The notes beneath the pieces are model-generated. The model saw only the letters and a program-made list of their open reading frames with translations, was not told the origin of the DNA and searched no databases. A DNA stretch of 64,000 nt, from NCBI GenBank assembly GCA_950022695.1, contig CATLLN010000003.1, positions 62,001-126,000 of the forward strand, written 5' to 3'. Positions 16,751 through 57,235 of this stretch are shown piece by piece. The position numbers and the translations under genes were made by a program. Origin of the DNA: an uncultured bacterium. Its GTDB lineage: Bacteria > Cyanobacteriota > Vampirovibrionia > Gastranaerophilales > Gastranaerophilaceae. Position 1 is the first letter of the stretch; every line of letters starts with the position of its first letter.

Positions 16751-18058
16751 TTATATAAAGTTAATAGTGCTTGGAACATTTAGAAGATTACAGCTATAAT
16801 TTCCGCCGCAATACTTACTTATTCCACCTGAAACAGAATTCTTTGCTTCATGGATTTTGGCTTTTAATGCTATAATTCCAACTTCAAGTCCAAGCTCTAC
16901 ATCCTTCTGAATAGCTTGAAATAAATCTTTTGCTGTCGGATATTTCTTTTTCATTTCATCTATACGTGCATCATCCTGACTAAAATGAGCTTTATGCCAA
17001 GCCTCATTAATTTTACCACCTTCAGAATATATGCACTGACAAGTTTTAAAATCAACTTGCATTACACCCTTATACAATCCTCCGGGATTTTCCATGGATT
17101 TTTTACAGAAATTATAGCCTCCGGATTCATTCCCAAGAACGTCTGCTATTACAGGTGCAATCTCTTCGATATCATATTTTTGACATTTTTCTATTACCAT
17201 TTTTGTAATATTTTCTGCTTTTTCTAAATACTTTGCCTGCTCATTTTTCGGCATTTGAGATATATCAGTATAAAATCCGCCTTTGCCATTTGGGAATCTT
17301 TTTATAAGCTGCATAGTAACAACATTGCTTACTGGTTTATATTGCCGATTACGTTTTATCGGTTCAATAGAATCTGTTTGTGCAATCTTACTTTCAACTG
17401 TTTCAATTCTTTTAACAGTACTATTTATAAATTTGTTTAAATCACTAATATTTTTAATATCTTGATATTGTTCGTGAGATACGTTTTTAATATTTAGAAT
17501 TTTTGCTCTTGCCACCAATGGAGAGCATATTTTAGACTTAACATCTTTAATCTCAAGTCCCCATTCATTATCAACTGCACTTGCCAATGATTCTTTTGGA
17601 CTAATCTTATTATATTGTTTGATAACTTCAAGGACATTAGTCTCATCTATTTTACTAAGTAAAGCCAGTGTATTATCATTCAAACTAGGGCCTGATATTT
17701 GAGTCAATAAATCATTTGCAAGTTTTTTCCCATCATTTGTTGATGCTAAACTTCTAATAAAATTTTTATAATCAGCAGTCGTAATTTTTGAATTTTTAGA
17801 AAATAATTTTAACCCGTTTTCAATTTCTTTATCAGTTAGCTTGCCGTCTTTTTTACCATTAGCTTGATCAAGCTTAGTGAAAACACTAAACGCCTGCTTA
17901 ATTTCTTCGGTAGATAACTTATTATCACCATTTTTGTCAAAATACTCAAAAATACTTTTTAGATTTTGGTTATTTCTTGTAATTTCATTTATGCCAATAT
18001 CATTTTGAGGATTACCAAAATGATAATTTTTACCATCTATCTGCACAGCGGCCTCCAT
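16751..18058 (-). CDS. EF-hand protein with C-terminal lysozyme/transglycosylase-like domain
   Basis: I do not know a named family for this 435-residue protein. An N-terminal canonical EF-hand loop spans D41-K-N-G-D-N-K-L-S-T-E-E52, and a second degenerate loop ends at E78 (DGKLTDKE), so calcium binding is likely. The C-terminal part (about 285-420) resembles an SLT transglycosylase: E310 in LGNESGG (catalytic position), KGVMQV at 329-334 (compare GLMQ), VELGLEVGIIALK, and YCGG where SLT enzymes have an AYNAG-type motif. No signal peptide is visible, which is odd for a murein enzyme and would need a non-Sec route, for example flagellar-type export. A strong sigma-28-like promoter lies at 18079-18105. 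The substrate prediction is inference. Confidence 0.65.
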   Translation of the reverse strand: MEAAVQIDGKNYHFGNPQNDIGINEITRNNQNLKSIFEYFDKNGDNKLSTEEIKQAFSVFTKLDQANGKKDGKLTDKEIENGLKLFSKNSKITTADYKNFIRSLASTNDGKKLANDLLTQISGPSLNDNTLALLSKIDETNVLEVIKQYNKISPKESLASAVDNEWGLEIKDVKSKICSPLVARAKILNIKNVSHEQYQDIKNISDLNKFINSTVKRIETVESKIAQTDSIEPIKRNRQYKPVSNVVTMQLIKRFPNGKGGFYTDISQMPKNEQAKYLEKAENITKMVIEKCQKYDIEEIAPVIADVLGNESGGYNFCKKSMENPGGLYKGVMQVDFKTCQCIYSEGGKINEAWHKAHFSQDDARIDEMKKKYPTAKDLFQAIQKDVELGLEVGIIALKAKIHEAKNSVSGGISKYCGGNYSCNLLNVPSTINFI

Positions 18059-18078: not shown

Positions 18079-18105
18079 ATATCGGTAAAAATTATATTAA
18101 CTTTA
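18079..18105 (-). promoter_or_regulatory. Sigma-28 (FliA)-like promoter of the EF-hand/lysozyme-fold gene
   Basis: On the minus strand TAAAGTTA, an 11-base spacer, then ACCGATAT. The enterobacterial FliA consensus is TAAAGTTT-N11-GCCGATAA, so 13 of 16 positions match with exact spacing. The -10 ends 20 bases before the start codon. A second such site lies at 52156-52182. Confidence 0.7.
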
Positions 18106-45208: not shown

Positions 45209-45235
45209 ATTATAACAAACATTTCTTATTGTCAA
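45209..45235 (-). promoter_or_regulatory. Promoter of tRNA-Leu
   Basis: On the minus strand a perfect TTGACA and a perfect TATAAT separated by 15 bases, ending 22 bases before the tRNA. The -35 overlaps the stop codon of the patatin gene. Confidence 0.7.
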
Positions 45236-46443
45236 ACAGAAAATTTATTAATATACTTCTCTATTTCAATAACTCTTAATTCCACATCAGAAGTTATTGC
45301 ATTAAGTGAAGTCTCTATATTTTCACTGTTTGAACAAGAAGCTCGTCCTAATAACCCTGATTTTACATTATTATATACAAGCTTTTGAAACAGATATATC
45401 ACATCAAATAAATCCGAATCAATAACATCTTTTACGGTTGAAAGATAAATAAAAAGCTCTGCTACTGAAGTTTTTACAGCAAAAAACTTTTTCCTTATCA
45501 TAAATCTTTGAATTTGTTTTAATTTATCTCGAATTTTAGAATATATCTTAAAAATTTCATTTTTTTTAGGCAAAATTTTTTCTTTAAAATAGGATAAAGT
45601 TTGTTTATAACCATCATCAATAATTGCTTGTCGTTTTTCTCCGGGATAGTTAAAATCGACAACAACAACATTACCTGTATCAATTATAAGATAATCATAT
45701 CTGTCACGCTGACCATAAAGCTTACTAATAAATGAAGTTTCTGAGGATGTCATACATGTGTACATGCCATTAACATATTCAATAGGACTTTGATCTGAAC
45801 CTGAAAAAGATCCTTCCAAACGAACTTCAAGAATTCTATCCGGAGAATTATGAATATTTTTAGAAAGCGACCACATAGGTTTTCCCTTCATTAAATCTCC
45901 ATCAACAAGCAAATCGTCTTCTAAAGTCACTGCACGCATCAATCCCGGCATGCAGCAAGAAATTCTAACAGCCATTGCAACTTCAAAATCGGGAGTTTCG
46001 AAATTAGAAAATTCTTTACACGAAAAATCCTTCATATTTGTTGTTATAATTATTAAATCCTTATTCAAATCTTTAAAAGTAACAGGATTACACTGTCCCT
46101 TCTGATAGTTTTTTCCGTAATATTTTCTTTCAATAAGTTCTCTAAGCCATTCCAAGAAAATTTCACCTTTACTTAAAGCGAATTTTTGATTAAATCCTAG
46201 TGAAATATCTCTAAAAAGCTCAAAATTCACTGATAAGAACACTTCTGATAATTCTTGCGGAGTATAGCCAACCGCATATAAAGAAGCTACCATAGCACCG
46301 ACAGATGAGCCCGCAAGTGTTGTTAATTCTATACCTAAATCATTTAATGCATTCAAAACCCCAGCATGCGCCGCACCTCGTATTGCTCCACCGCCAAATA
46401 AACATGTGTATTTAAAATTGCTGTGCTCTCTCATAAAAACCAT
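45232..46443 (-). CDS. Patatin-like phospholipase
   Basis: Serine acyl hydrolase acting on phospholipids or other lipids, probably at the membrane. It is 403 residues. The oxyanion hole GGGAIRG is at 17-23, the nucleophile S47 is in GSSVG (45-49), and the catalytic aspartate is in LLVDGDLMKG. The C-terminal 130 residues are helical and polar with no family I can name. No signal peptide. The start could be ATG 46443 or ATG 46434; neither has a clear ribosome site. A terminator for the upstream gene ends only a few bases before the start, so its promoter must be very close or overlap it. Confidence 0.88.
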   Translation of the reverse strand: MVFMREHSNFKYTCLFGGGAIRGAAHAGVLNALNDLGIELTTLAGSSVGAMVASLYAVGYTPQELSEVFLSVNFELFRDISLGFNQKFALSKGEIFLEWLRELIERKYYGKNYQKGQCNPVTFKDLNKDLIIITTNMKDFSCKEFSNFETPDFEVAMAVRISCCMPGLMRAVTLEDDLLVDGDLMKGKPMWSLSKNIHNSPDRILEVRLEGSFSGSDQSPIEYVNGMYTCMTSSETSFISKLYGQRDRYDYLIIDTGNVVVVDFNYPGEKRQAIIDDGYKQTLSYFKEKILPKKNEIFKIYSKIRDKLKQIQRFMIRKKFFAVKTSVAELFIYLSTVKDVIDSDLFDVIYLFQKLVYNNVKSGLLGRASCSNSENIETSLNAITSDVELRVIEIEKYINKFSV

Positions 46444-50007: not shown

Positions 50008-52110
50008 TTACGCGCTTTGATTGAACTTGAATGTTCTTTGTACGTTCTTATCAATAACACCTTTGATTACATCGTATTCTGCAAGTAATGAAGAGTGTTC
50101 TGTATCAATATTTTTAAGCTGCATATCATAGATATTATCTTTTGCTTTAATATCATTCATTGCACGATTATATTCAGCTTCAGCTTTTGTAGTTGCTTCT
50201 GTATCTGTTTCTTCTGTAATTTTTGTACAAGTTTTGTAACTTAAACCATTCCATTTGAATGATTTATCAACTTGTTCTAATGACACAATACCATTTTCTA
50301 AAGCATATGTAAGCCATTCAGAAGATGATGCTAAACCATTTTCAATAGCTTTATAACCTTGTTTCATTCTGTTAAACAAGTTTGTATACCATTGAGCTTT
50401 GGCATCAGCATTACCTTTGTTTGATGTATCATTTTCATCAACCCAAGCATATTTTGGCTCACCGTAAACTTCAATCATGTTATCAATTAAATATTCTTTA
50501 ATTACGGTATTGAAGCTTTCTGATTGCTTTATTTTAATTTTAGGTTTTTCAAGATCTTCAGGAAGTTTTTCTACTGCATCTAAATATTTCAATACAAAAT
50601 CTACATCAGTTAAGTTTTCAACAGTAACAACATATTTAATAGGTTTTCCATCTTCATCAAGCTCTCCAGTCTCAAATGTAAAATTTTCTTTAATATGTTG
50701 ATCCACCTGTTTTATAGAATCTGAACTAAAAATATTATTCATAAACGTAGATTTTGAATCATTGTATTCTTTTAATACTGTTTCAAGAGTCTTGTTTAGT
50801 CCAGGTATTTCACTTGTAACATCAATACCATATTGTTCCGGCTTGAAATCTTTACTAAGTAAAAGTTCAGAAAAGTTTTCGAAATTTGCAGATTTATTAA
50901 TTAAATACACAATATCTTCTGCAATAGAATTTAACTGAGCTTTAACCTCATTCAAGTCAGATGAATATGTAGTTGTAGTAAGCCCTGTTTCTTCCGAATA
51001 ATTATAATAAAAATATTGAACAGTACCATTATCCTTAATTGGTTTATAAGCAAAGTTATTCATAAACGTCTCAAATGGTACTTTGTCTTCTATTTTTATA
51101 CCATTAAGAAGTTCAACATCTTTAGCATAATCTTGTGCTTCTTCACAATTATAACCGGTAACATTGCCATCTTTATCAACAGTTATTTTAATACCGTCAT
51201 CAGTAACATATTCATAACCGCCACCATCTAACTCAGTTTTAGTTAAAGTAGTATTCGCTGTATATTTAATCATCTCTTCCCCAATTGCATTTGTTACTAC
51301 AGAGAATTGATTCAATCTTGCTGCTACTGCTGTTTCAACAGTATCTGGAAGCAAATTTTTATTAATTAATTTTTTAACATTAAATGTATTTGTTCCATTT
51401 TCATCTAAAAAAGCATTTTGGAAAGCCTTTAATGCATCTGAAAGAGAGTTTGCCTCAGTAATAGAACTGATTTCAAATTCTTTTTGTGCATTATATTGTA
51501 TTTTTGGCGTATTTCCTGAATATTTCAAATAGCTTTCAAAAGAAGTTTCAGTAGCTTTTATTAAGTTATTTGAACTTATAACATAATCTTTATAAGATTT
51601 TTCATAATCTTCAACTTCTTTTGAATTCTGATAACTTCCATATCCTTCATAGTATTTTTTCATATCTTCAACACTAATGTTTTTGAAAGGTTCCGGATAA
51701 GTAGGATTTTCAAAAGCACCTAATTGATCAAAATAAGTTGTTGTATATTCAAGACCATGTTTTTTCAAATATGCATCCAAATTGCCTTCTGCACTCGCAA
51801 AAATAGCAGCTTCATCTTCGCTTACCAAAATTTGACCAGCAGAATTTATAAGACCATATTGAGTATTATATGAACTATATGCAGTTAACGCATTATAAGA
51901 TAAATCTTGAATTTGAGCATTACCAGCAGAATCATAATTGCTAAATTTCAATGTAGCATTATTCAAAGCATTAATATAATTTTGGCTTGCTTGTGAACTT
52001 TGAGTAGCCAAACGCATTTTAGCATTATTAATAGTTTGAGATCTTAACTCATTATCAGCCAAACGAGCTGTGATAGTTAATAATCTAGCTTGTGATGCTG
52101 CCATTCCCAT
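50008..52110 (-). CDS. Large hypothetical protein with conserved-looking helical N-terminus
   Basis: A 700-residue protein of unknown function. It starts MGMAASQARLLTITARLADN, followed by a Gln/Ser/Asn-rich helix to about residue 50; I associate this type of N-terminus with families of proteins in gut Melainabacteria, from memory. There is no Sec signal peptide or membrane helix. The rest is acidic, Asn/Lys/Glu-rich, with alternating coiled-coil and beta segments, ending in a long helix (about 640-690). ATG 52110 has AAAGGAT 10 bases upstream. A near-perfect sigma-28 promoter precedes it, so a flagellar-type secreted or structural protein is a reasonable hypothesis. Confidence 0.65.
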   Translation of the reverse strand: MGMAASQARLLTITARLADNELRSQTINNAKMRLATQSSQASQNYINALNNATLKFSNYDSAGNAQIQDLSYNALTAYSSYNTQYGLINSAGQILVSEDEAAIFASAEGNLDAYLKKHGLEYTTTYFDQLGAFENPTYPEPFKNISVEDMKKYYEGYGSYQNSKEVEDYEKSYKDYVISSNNLIKATETSFESYLKYSGNTPKIQYNAQKEFEISSITEANSLSDALKAFQNAFLDENGTNTFNVKKLINKNLLPDTVETAVAARLNQFSVVTNAIGEEMIKYTANTTLTKTELDGGGYEYVTDDGIKITVDKDGNVTGYNCEEAQDYAKDVELLNGIKIEDKVPFETFMNNFAYKPIKDNGTVQYFYYNYSEETGLTTTTYSSDLNEVKAQLNSIAEDIVYLINKSANFENFSELLLSKDFKPEQYGIDVTSEIPGLNKTLETVLKEYNDSKSTFMNNIFSSDSIKQVDQHIKENFTFETGELDEDGKPIKYVVTVENLTDVDFVLKYLDAVEKLPEDLEKPKIKIKQSESFNTVIKEYLIDNMIEVYGEPKYAWVDENDTSNKGNADAKAQWYTNLFNRMKQGYKAIENGLASSSEWLTYALENGIVSLEQVDKSFKWNGLSYKTCTKITEETDTEATTKAEAEYNRAMNDIKAKDNIYDMQLKNIDTEHSSLLAEYDVIKGVIDKNVQRTFKFNQSA

Positions 52111-52155
52111 TGTAAGCTTTATCCTTTCGTTTCCTTAAAACTTTTCTTATTATAT

Positions 52156-52182
52156 AAATCGGCATTTTTCCCTGAAACTTTA
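52156..52182 (-). promoter_or_regulatory. Sigma-28 (FliA)-like promoter of the 700-aa protein gene
   Basis: On the minus strand TAAAGTTT, exactly 11 bases, then GCCGATTT. Against the FliA consensus TAAAGTTT-N11-GCCGATAA this is 14 of 16 positions. It ends 45 bases before the start codon. Confidence 0.8.
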
Positions 52183-52235: not shown

Positions 52236-52261
52236 AAGGTCAGAAAATATTTTCTGACCTT
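52236..52261 (-). terminator. Terminator of the 116-aa Cys/Gly-rich protein gene
   Basis: A perfect 13-base inverted repeat, AAGGTCAGAAAAT with its complement, followed on the minus strand by TCTTTTT. It lies 28 bases past the stop codon. Confidence 0.88.
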
Positions 52262-52289: not shown

Positions 52290-52640
52290 TTATCCTACAG
52301 AACAGAATGATGAGCAAGATGCTCCGGAAAAAGAAGATGCTCCGCCAAAATCTCCGCCACCAAATCCGCAATCCCCAAGAACTGCAACAGCTGCGGCGAA
52401 TTCACCCATAAATCCTGTACCTTCAGAATCTGTAAAATCACAATCTGAATACATTGAATAATCAATAACAGAAGGATTAGAAGAAATATATGTATCATAC
52501 TCTCCAACAGTTAACAAACTTTTTGCTTCACTTAAACCCATTGCTAAAACACCTGCATTTTCTACCGGATTATTTTTAACATTATTAGTCTTATTTGAAG
52601 CTGAACTTTTTGATGCTTGTTTTCCGAATAGTAATATCAT
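52290..52640 (-). CDS. Small protein with Gly/Ser/Cys-rich C-terminus
   Basis: A 116-residue protein I do not recognise. The N-terminal 35 residues are Lys/Ser/Asn-rich, then comes a helical part (AGVLAMGLSEAKSLLTVGEY) and an acidic aromatic segment (DYSMYSDCDFTDSEG). The C-terminal tail is GDCGFGGGDFGGASSFSG followed by ASCSSFCSVG, with four of the five cysteines in the last 30 residues. Such a tail could be a modified peptide, a metal site or a disulfide-rich end. No maturation enzyme is adjacent. It has its own promoter-like box and terminator. A strong TAGGAGA ribosome site supports the start. Confidence 0.65.
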   Translation of the reverse strand: MILLFGKQASKSSASNKTNNVKNNPVENAGVLAMGLSEAKSLLTVGEYDTYISSNPSVIDYSMYSDCDFTDSEGTGFMGEFAAAVAVLGDCGFGGGDFGGASSFSGASCSSFCSVG

Positions 52641-55612: not shown

Positions 55613-57235
55613 ATGCAAAATAGTAATAGAGAATATAAAATAAATTACTTAGATACAAATGAATGTACTTCACGCGGAGCTTGTTCCGTATCACCTAGTA
55701 TTGCTTCAATGGAAGAAGTTGCAATGCTTTTTTTGCAACAGCTTGCTTATTATATTTTGAAACTTGAAAACTTTGGCGCCAGCAATGATAAAATTCGACT
55801 GGAAATAATTACAACACTTGCAAGCTTAATTTCACTAAACGAATTTAGTGAAAAACAACTTCATACAATAATCGTTAATGAATATTTCATGCTTGAAGAA
55901 GTGAAGAAAACCTACAACCAGCTTTGCAAAGAAAAAAACATTGTGCCGCAAGATATAAAACGTATCTCAAAGTTTAACGCTTCAACTAGTGTAGCTCAAA
56001 CAATAGCTCTTGGTGAAAAATTATTTCTTGAAAAATATAATAAAATTTCAACTGAACAAAAAAATCTTATTGAAATTTTAATGATTATAATTAAAAGTGT
56101 CAGCCTAAATCTTATAAAATTAAACGATTTTAACGAGTTTGACAGTGAAATTTATCATGAAATTTTAAAAACATTAGATATATTTAATGATAAAAAATTG
56201 CAAAATAAACAAGTGATGGAAAATATTTCAAAACTTGCAATGTTTGATTATAAACTTCAATTAAAAATAAGTGAATTGCTGTTAAAAACTTTTGACGGAA
56301 TTTCAAAAGTTGAAGTCTCTCATTCCACAACTAAAGGTAAGGCTATACTTGTTTCCGGAAACAATTTTTTTGATTTATTAAAAATTTTAGAAGAAACAAA
56401 AGATAAAGATATTGATATCTATACACATTCAAACTTGCTTATAACACATGCGCTTAACAAGTTCCATCAATTTAAAAACCTAAAAGGTCATTATGGAGAT
56501 AATACAGAAAATTGTATACTTGATTTTGCAACCTTCCCGGGTTCGATACTTCTAACTAAAAACTCAAAAAATAACACCGAATATCTATACCGCGGAAGAT
56601 TATTTTCAAATGATTACATTGTACCGAACGGTGTAATAAAAATTGAAAACGATAATTATGATGAGCTTATCGAAGCCTCAGAAAATGCCAAAGGATTTTC
56701 TAAAGGGAAAACAAAAGAAAATACTATACTTGGATTCAACGAACAAGAAATTGAAACTCAAATTAATACTATTATCGAAAAACTTAATAACGGTAGTATT
56801 GAAAAGCTCTATATTATTGGTATAGATCCACATTCACAAATACAAAAAGAATACTTTAAAGAGTTTCTGACAAAATTAAAACCTAAAGAATTTGCGATAA
56901 GTTTTTCATATGAAAGTAAAAAAGACAATGTCTTAACGATAAATATAGGAAATTACATTCCGCTTGCAAGCGCAATACTCAAAAAACTTTTTGATAAATA
57001 TCCGCTTTCAAGTAATAAAATAGTATTTTTATTTACAACCTGCGATGTTATGACAATCTCAAATATCATTATACTTAAAAATAAAGATGCTAAAAATATA
57101 CATATGGCAAAATGTCAGCCTACAATAATTAATCCATCTGTTTTTGAGACATTTAGCAATACATATTCAATAAAAACAACCACAAATCCCGAAAATGATT
57201 TAAATCTAATAAGAAAACAAAAAGACACTCCGTAA
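55613..57235 (+). CDS. Hybrid-cluster-protein (Hcp) homologue lacking most metal ligands
   Basis: A 540-residue protein that aligns along its length with Hcp/hydroxylamine reductase. C18-x5-C24 (ECTSRGACSVSP) matches only the second half of the four-cysteine N-terminal cluster. The Hcp core is recognisable as ILVSGNNFFDLLKILEETK, DIYTHSNLL, HYGDNTENCILDFATFPGS and KNIHMAKCQPTIINPSVF. However, the glutamate of YTHGE is Asn, the cysteine of TxNC is Ser, and the segments holding the other cluster cysteines and the WFEQKA Glu/Lys are replaced (FSYESKKDN, NIGNYIP, TTCDVM). It probably binds no hybrid cluster. It is paired with a glutaredoxin gene; its role is unknown. Confidence 0.68.
   Translation: MQNSNREYKINYLDTNECTSRGACSVSPSIASMEEVAMLFLQQLAYYILKLENFGASNDKIRLEIITTLASLISLNEFSEKQLHTIIVNEYFMLEEVKKTYNQLCKEKNIVPQDIKRISKFNASTSVAQTIALGEKLFLEKYNKISTEQKNLIEILMIIIKSVSLNLIKLNDFNEFDSEIYHEILKTLDIFNDKKLQNKQVMENISKLAMFDYKLQLKISELLLKTFDGISKVEVSHSTTKGKAILVSGNNFFDLLKILEETKDKDIDIYTHSNLLITHALNKFHQFKNLKGHYGDNTENCILDFATFPGSILLTKNSKNNTEYLYRGRLFSNDYIVPNGVIKIENDNYDELIEASENAKGFSKGKTKENTILGFNEQEIETQINTIIEKLNNGSIEKLYIIGIDPHSQIQKEYFKEFLTKLKPKEFAISFSYESKKDNVLTINIGNYIPLASAILKKLFDKYPLSSNKIVFLFTTCDVMTISNIIILKNKDAKNIHMAKCQPTIINPSVFETFSNTYSIKTTTNPENDLNLIRKQKDTP

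What the first reader, a model, noticed from the sequence alone, without database searches (positions are those of the whole stretch)
52156..52182. Near-perfect FliA (sigma-28) promoter in front of a 700-aa protein of unknown function
The minus strand reads TAAAGTTT, exactly 11 bases, GCCGATTT, 45 bases before the start codon. This matches the textbook FliA consensus at 14 of 16 positions. The gene product has no Sec signal and a helical N-terminus, so it may be a new flagellum- or motility-class protein of this lineage, such as an exported filament-associated or effector protein.
Basis: partly seen in the sequence, partly recalled or inferred. Interest (0 to 1): 0.7.

Follow-up and report, generated by a model that had tools for sequence, protein, structure and literature searches.

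The report
Sigma-28 controlled family in nonflagellated bacteria
The predicted flagellar-type promoter holds up, and the gene behind it belongs to a protein family matching no known one here, which a genus of gut relatives of cyanobacteria keeps under flagellar control although it seems to lack flagellin, perhaps as the outer part or cargo of a second flagellum-like export machine.

Summary
The motif is as described: TAAAGTTT-N11-GCCGATTT, 14 of 16 consensus positions, 45 nt before the ATG. The genome has FliA over its curated cut-off. The 700-aa protein is one of at least six paralogues in this Gastranaerophilales-type genome, with conserved N- and C-terminal blocks around a variable middle. 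Of 60 family genes fetched from 31 of 36 other genomes of the genus, 56 carry the core at 8/9 or 9/9, 35-61 nt before the start; none of 196 unrelated own-genome ORFs reaches 9/9. Flagellin was found in 1 of 37 genomes of the genus, canonical FlhA and FliP in none; a second flagellum-like basal body and export gate remains, which flagellated relatives mostly carry beside their flagellum. Published passages treat such gene subsets as an incomplete flagellum; I propose a retained second machine whose late, sigma-28-dependent products are this family. The promoter is strongly supported. Export is inferred; filament subunit versus effector is open. A motility role is not supported in this genus, and most flagellins tested in relatives lack the full element.

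The parts
52175..52182 (-). -35 box TAAAGTTT of the sigma-28 (FliA) promoter
   Evidence: core conserved at 8/9 or 9/9 in 56 of 60 congeneric genes
52156..52163 (-). -10 box GCCGATTT
   Evidence: GCCG conserved in the same sites
52122..52128 (-). GAAAGGA, likely ribosome-binding site; GAAAGGA also precedes four of the five other own paralogues
   Evidence: Read by eye
50008..52110 (-). 700-aa protein of the MGxAASQAR family; no significant Pfam, NCBIfam, PHROG or PDB-sequence match
   Evidence: paralogues
51961..52107 (-). N-terminal helix (residues 2-50), conserved family block
   Evidence: AF2 model; alignments
50014..50202 (-). C-terminal helix (residues 637-699), conserved family block up to the last residues
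   Evidence: AF2 model; alignments
52238..52259 (-). Perfect 11-bp inverted repeat followed by a T-rich run: probable terminator of the upstream gene, lying between it and the promoter
   Evidence: Read directly; no terminator scan was run
52290..52640 (-). 116-aa protein of unknown function, found beside the 700-aa gene in 21 of 35 related loci (some loci are cut short); not shown to share the promoter

Best explanation
The site is a sigma-28 promoter. In Gastranaerophilales FliA transcribes, as late genes, a family of proteins with conserved N- and C-terminal helices and a variable middle. The genus of this genome seems to have lost flagellin and the canonical flagellar export gate but keeps a second flagellum-like machine: FliE, FliF, FliH, FlhA, FliO-P-Q-R, a FliM/N-type protein, FlgB, FlgC and three FlgE/F/G-like proteins were found. 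The family members are most likely substrates of that machine. Their termini would pack like the terminal helices of flagellar axial proteins and build its outer part (rod extension, short filament or cap), with the middle displayed outside. Shown: promoter conservation, presence of fliA, lack of a flagellin match, presence of the second machine, family architecture, partial gene linkage. Inferred: transcription by FliA, export, and assembly.
For: Promoter: 56 of 60 congeneric family genes have the core at 8/9 or 9/9, against 43 of 3000 shuffles; of 196 unrelated own ORFs 2 reach 8/9 and none 9/9; boxes identical in five own genes while spacers differ. Sigma factor: FliA over cut-off in 36 of 37 g1 genomes. 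Family: 59 of 60 relatives; the one negative (G059) also has no match for flagellin, FHIPEP, rod proteins, FliP or over-cut-off FliA. Machine. Linkage: a family member 5-8 kb from the FliE-FlhA block on C5, in a gene set (351, 272, 90, 110 aa) whose order recurs in G042; the first two genes recur together in 4 of 13 stretches from other orders; a family gene 2 kb from a FliI 74% identical to the system-2 FliI (L311); FliP2 about 10-13 kb from a family gene in the own genome, G023, G010 and G007. Architecture: members as short as 96 aa align only with the two terminal blocks, which are long helices in the 700-aa model.
Against: No significant sequence match to any flagellin, rod, hook, cap or needle family. 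Structural matches to flagellar filament, cap, rod and FlgK chains (Z 4.6 to 9.1) are no better than SMC-type coiled coils (Z 11.3), so inconclusive. Most own paralogues, including the one in the window, are not next to machine genes. The system-linked 353-365-aa type lacks the full element (4 of 4 fetched in g1, and the own C5 copy; one 366-aa g1 gene, L295, has 8/9). Only 2 of 20 flagellins in flagellated relatives have the full core. Outside the genus the element is weaker: 12 of 19 genes from other genera of the family and 9 of 20 from other orders at 8/9 or better. In 285 kb of own sequence 3 of 11 full-core sites lie inside ORFs. FlhB, secretin, L/P rings, FlgM and motor stators were not searched in this genome.
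Confidence: 0.55

Rival explanations
1. Secreted effectors: the N-terminal helix is only an export signal and the variable middle acts on neighbouring microbes or host cells; the second machine works as a secretion system.
For: Large paralogous family with long, variable middles in the gut genus (350-850 aa in most rows shown, against about 100-380 aa in most rows of other families of the order); genes scattered over the genome.
Against: The C-terminal block is conserved like the N-terminal one to the last residues, and 96-aa members consist of little more than the two blocks; an effector would need neither. No enzymatic or toxin domain found in the 700-aa protein.
Confidence: 0.25
2. Ordinary flagellar class-3 protein of a lineage losing its flagellum: fliA, promoter and basal-body genes are leftovers under decay.
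For: Published reading of non-flagellated members as having only a subset of flagellar genes, or ongoing reduction (PMC4040986 and PMC3787301, passages seen).
Against: The retained genes are a separate FlhA/FliP type that most flagellated relatives carry in addition (FlhA 36-38% identity between types, 70-74% within, six proteins compared); FlhA2 was found in 35 of 37 and FliP2 in 34 of 37 g1 genomes; the family is large and the promoter kept in 56 of 60 genes. Selection was not measured.
Confidence: 0.1
3. Promoter real but the proteins stay inside the cell (coiled-coil scaffold or chaperone of the machine).
For: Long terminal helices match many coiled-coil proteins; no signal peptide seen by eye.
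Against: Diversity and the partly beta-rich middle in the model suit exposed domains; sigma-28 genes are typically late and often exported (recalled).
Confidence: 0.1

Closest known systems
Flagellar class-3 (sigma-28) genes such as flagellin, FlgK/FlgL, FliD (recalled)
   Same: Same promoter type; conserved N- and C-terminal helices around a variable middle; type III export genes in the genome
   Different: No significant sequence match to these families; flagellin found in 1 of 37 genomes of the genus
Chlamydia sigma-28 regulon (abstract of PMC12282069 seen)
   Same: A sigma-28 that binds promoters of non-flagellar late genes
   Different: There only hctB and tsp were bound in the reported ChIP-seq; here a whole paralogous family carries the promoter
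Lysobacter enzymogenes retained flagellar genes (start of abstract of PMC9927559 seen in a search listing)
   Same: A nonflagellated bacterium keeps many flagellar genes
   Different: Here the retained set is a second, divergent system also present beside the flagellum in most relatives examined
Type III secretion needle subunits (recalled)
   Same: Minimal 96-aa members are of about that size and probably helical hairpins (inferred, not folded)
   Different: No Pfam or PDB sequence hit; the own genome keeps flagellar-type rod proteins FlgB/FlgC

Membership tests
Sigma-28 (FliA) promoter | TAAAGTTT-N11-GCCGATAA upstream of a start codon | tested here: met
   14 of 16
Sigma-28 (FliA) promoter | Cognate sigma factor encoded | tested here: met
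   FliA_WhiG 237 bits, cut-off 189.6
Sigma-28 (FliA) promoter | Conserved in related genes | tested here: met
   56 of 60 in the genus
Sigma-28 (FliA) promoter | Same element before flagellar late genes of the lineage | tested here: inconclusive
   2 of 20 flagellins of relatives have the full core
Sigma-28 (FliA) promoter | Mapped 5' end, FliA-dependent transcription | not testable with these tools
   No expression data
Flagellin / hook-associated / rod proteins | Sequence match to these families | tested here: not met
   No such hit for the 700-aa protein or for 19 short members
Flagellar axial fold | Terminal-helix core by structure | tested here: inconclusive
   Cap-filament chain 9gnz_U Z 9.1, flagellar filaments 8.2 and 8.1, distal rod 7.4, but SMC coiled coil 11.3
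Flagellum (second system) | FliE, FliF, FliP/Q/R, FlhA, FlgB, FlgC | tested here: met
   FlgB 54.2 of 59.05, FlgC 96.4 of 102.1, FliF 97.7 of 129.75 and FlhA 691 of 772 bits are below NCBIfam cut-offs; FliE and FliP are above
Flagellum (second system) | Flagellin filament | tested here: not met
   No PF00669 in 36 of 37 g1 genomes, own included
Non-flagellar injectisome | SctV-type export gate over its curated cut-off | tested here: not met
   FlhA2 583 bits against hrcV, cut-off 692; it is also below the FlhA cut-off
Non-flagellar injectisome | Secretin | not tested
   No search made
WXG100/LXG (type VII) substrates | Sequence match to WXG/LXG domains | tested here: not met
   LXG in 1 of 19 short members at E 0.13 only

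The most novel reading that the evidence does not exclude
Gut Gastranaerophilales build a non-motile surface appendage on a second, flagellum-derived basal body, using a new multigene family of filament or tip subunits that is not flagellin, switched on by the old flagellar sigma factor; flagellated relatives run this appendage beside a true flagellum.
Probability: 0.4. Interest if true: 0.85.

Novelty: new variant of a known kind. Interest (0 to 1): 0.7.

Why it matters
It would change how incomplete flagellar gene sets in gut melainabacteria are read: not decay but a conserved second machine with its own sigma-28 regulon. It gives a clean, testable set of candidate surface proteins in a largely uncultured gut group (recalled), and a natural case of a flagellar sigma factor outliving the flagellum.

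Tried and rejected
Chance motif: rejected by conservation and position, though the site alone would not be significant. Known family: Pfam, NCBIfam, PHROGs, phage tblastn and PDB sequence searches gave nothing significant. Viral origin: A4 against viral contigs found no relative. Structure: Foldseek no match at E <= 1e-3; families not listed are not excluded. A fold of a short family member was not run, because those loci are outside the sources that structure prediction names. One search printed nothing (my pattern was wrong; repeated); one search printed nothing and was replaced. In one search the start was not found in 6 of 30 family loci, so 11 of 24 have the full core there, in a looser scan. 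Of the 20 upstream regions one (L295) is from the genus itself, so the set labelled 'other genera' has 19. L249 was fetched by mistake and not used. The class-wide search shows 163 of 240 genomes with a match; 57 genomes without a match are not shown. An earlier count said that the genus has no FlgE/G; one search corrected that.

Full report
Observation. The minus strand has TAAAGTTT-N11-GCCGATTT at 52182-52156, 45 nt before the ATG of a 700-aa ORF at 50008-52110. It is the best window match to the consensus (2 mismatches). Genome-wide, a slightly looser pattern has one perfect match and two with one mismatch, ours among the latter; at up to 3 mismatches there are 778 matches against 602 for the reversed control. 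The perfect one and the other one-mismatch site lie antisense within short ORFs. The site alone proves little. A perfect inverted repeat with a T-rich run just upstream (52259-52238, read) probably ends the preceding gene, so the 700-aa gene looks like its own unit.

Where it is. Titles of related loci include Candidatus Gastranaerophilales bacterium and Candidatus Melainabacteria bacterium, many are just 'uncultured bacterium'; one is titled Muribaculaceae, probably a mis-binned contig. The own genome has 1.95 Mb in 37 contigs. I call its genus g1 and its family f1, as the tool does.

The gene is one of a family. tblastn in the own genome gives the window gene and five paralogues of 351, 442, 485, 575 and 670 aa (from ATG) with shared ends and dissimilar middles. 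An N-terminal profile (A2) finds 8 matches in the own genome (six are listed) and matches in 59 of 60 relatives. Members are 350-850 aa in most g1 rows shown, and about 100-380 aa in most rows of 22 genomes of other families of the order. In G043 four tandem genes of 95-96 aa are little more than the two terminal blocks. A class-wide search finds the family in 163 of 240 genomes: 143 in f1 (by subtraction), one in f6, and 19 in other families of the class (f9, f14, f15, mostly with ORFs of about 110-150 aa, and one weak match in f8). The 20 unmatched genomes shown all belong to f8 and f10-f13; 57 more are not shown.

Promoter conservation. I fetched 60 upstream regions from 31 of the 36 other g1 genomes, picked from the rows shown: mostly strong matches, plus four of the 353-365-aa type. 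With the core TAAAG-N14/15-GCCG, 15-120 nt upstream, 52 score 9/9, 4 score 8/9, and the four of the 353-365-aa type score 6; the 56 good sites end 35-61 nt before the start, counted from GCCG. Controls: 43 of 3000 dinucleotide shuffles reach 8; 0 of 60 with a scrambled -35; of 196 unrelated own-genome ORFs of at least 150 aa, 2 reach 8 and none 9. The spacer between TAAAGNNN and GCCG is 11 nt in 21 and 12 nt in 35 of the 56 sites. Among five own genes with the element the boxes are identical; mean pairwise identity is 27% in the first 10 nt of the spacer, 52% in the 15 nt before and 40% in the 20 nt after the boxes. Many of the 60 genes are orthologues of each other, so they are not 60 independent events. 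Beyond the genus: 12 of 19 genes of other f1 genera at 8 or 9 (2 at 9), plus one g1 gene of 366 aa (L295) at 8; other orders 9 of 20 (2 at 9); shuffles 1.4% and 2.3%. In other families of this order 11 of 24 family genes with a recognised start have 9/9 in a looser scan.

Results against. Of 20 flagellin genes fetched from flagellated relatives only 2 (both family f6) have 9/9; some others have TAAAG with NCGAT in place of GCCG at varying distance. So a regulon shared with flagellin is only partly shown. In 285 kb of own sequence (window plus stretches chosen partly for their family genes) there are 11 full-core sites: five before family genes, one before the 90/110-aa pair, two before ORFs of 57 and 136 aa, and three inside ORFs.

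Sigma factor and machine. FliA over the NCBIfam cut-off is in 54 of 60 relatives and in 36 of 37 g1 genomes (the exception, G028, is 73% complete). Flagellin is in 1 of 37 g1 genomes (G014, 6% contamination, which also has two over-cut-off FliA) and in 21 of 22 other genomes of the order. FHIPEP comes in two full-length types: the 859-891-bit type is in 19 of 22 order genomes and 0 of 37 g1; the second type (up to 726 bits, in some genomes split over contigs) is in 35 of 37 g1 (not G028, G036) and 19 of 22. FliP behaves alike: the canonical type in 0 of 37 g1, the second type in 34 of 37; in the order in 18 and 21 of 22, with one partial match left unassigned. FlhA identities are 70-74% within and 36-38% between types (six proteins). 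In the own genome, C5 holds FliE, FliF, a protein in the FliG position without a clear Pfam match, FliH and FlhA; C1 holds FliR, FliQ, FliP, FliO and a protein with a FliM/N C-terminal domain; C6 holds FlgC, FlgB and two FlgF/G-like proteins, C3 a third FlgE/F/G-like protein with sub-threshold FliK- and FliJ-like neighbours. In two flagellated relatives (L243, L244) the second cluster is one block; in L243 it includes a lytic transglycosylase and a FliI. Rod-type (PF00460) matches number 1-3 per g1 genome against 2-9 in the other order genomes.

Linkage. The 351-aa paralogue sits in a set of 351, 272, 90 and 110 aa that begins 5-8 kb from the FliE-FlhA block on C5. The set recurs in the same order in G042, and its first two genes recur together in four of the 13 stretches fetched from other orders (L300, L305, L307, L310). 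The 90/110-aa pair has its own full-core site 129 nt upstream of the 90-aa ORF. In L311 a family gene is 2 kb from a FliI 74% identical to that of the second cluster. In two g1 stretches (L314, L315) the FliP2 block is about 10 kb from a family gene, as in the own genome; in G007 the distance is about 13 kb by coordinates.

Structure. AF2 on 21 sequences gives mean pLDDT 82.7 and pTM 0.54, with helices 2-50 and 637-699 and a mixed middle. Foldseek finds nothing at E <= 1e-3. VIA-align rows contain a chain of the Salmonella cap-filament complex (Z 9.1), two flagellar filaments (8.2, 8.1), distal rod chains (7.4, 7.2), FliD (6.8) and FlgK (4.6), but also SMC-type coiled coils (11.3, 9.6) and other long-helix proteins; for long helices that is inconclusive.

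Mechanism proposed. FliA transcribes the family late. The proteins leave through the second gate and their helices pack at the outer end of the rod as axial subunits, or (rival) they are released as effectors. The first step is well supported, the second is inferred from linkage and co-occurrence, the third is open.

Literature. [quoted passage not shown] A passage of PMC5877343 says that a termite-gut member has more flagellar and chemotaxis genes and is likely motile. The gene list of PMC3787301 names two flhA genes in ACD20, consistent with two systems; the passages I saw do not remark on it. The listings show no title or abstract start that describes a second type III system or this family in the group; that covers only the open-licence library and those terms. 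Sigma-28 acting on non-flagellar genes is known from Chlamydia (abstract of PMC12282069).

Noticed in passing
window 16751-18058 (-), motif 18079-18105: A 435-aa EF-hand protein without a visible signal peptide has TAAAGTTA-N11-ACCGATAT, ending (ACCG) 24 nt before its ATG; its C-terminal part looks lytic-transglycosylase-like by eye only. It may be another sigma-28 target.
   Followed up: partly
window 52290-52640 (-): The 116-aa neighbour with a Gly/Ser/Cys-rich tail is found upstream of the 700-aa gene in 21 of 35 related loci; no family match.
   Followed up: partly
L255 14343 (-), L058 13550 (-), L298 2083 (+): Three more full-core sites 26-37 nt upstream of ORFs of 136, 57 and 367 aa of unknown function: candidate regulon members.
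   Followed up: partly
L062 8835-10313 (+): A 492-aa protein carrying only the C-terminal half of FlhA (PF00771 positions 310-652); similar half-length matches occur in many of the 60 genomes.
   Followed up: no
window 55613-57235 (+): A hydroxylamine-reductase/prismane relative that scores at half the curated cut-off (184 of 367 bits): divergent, perhaps with a changed function.
   Followed up: no
window 45232-46443 (-): Patatin-like phospholipase (Pfam E 2.9e-29).
   Followed up: no
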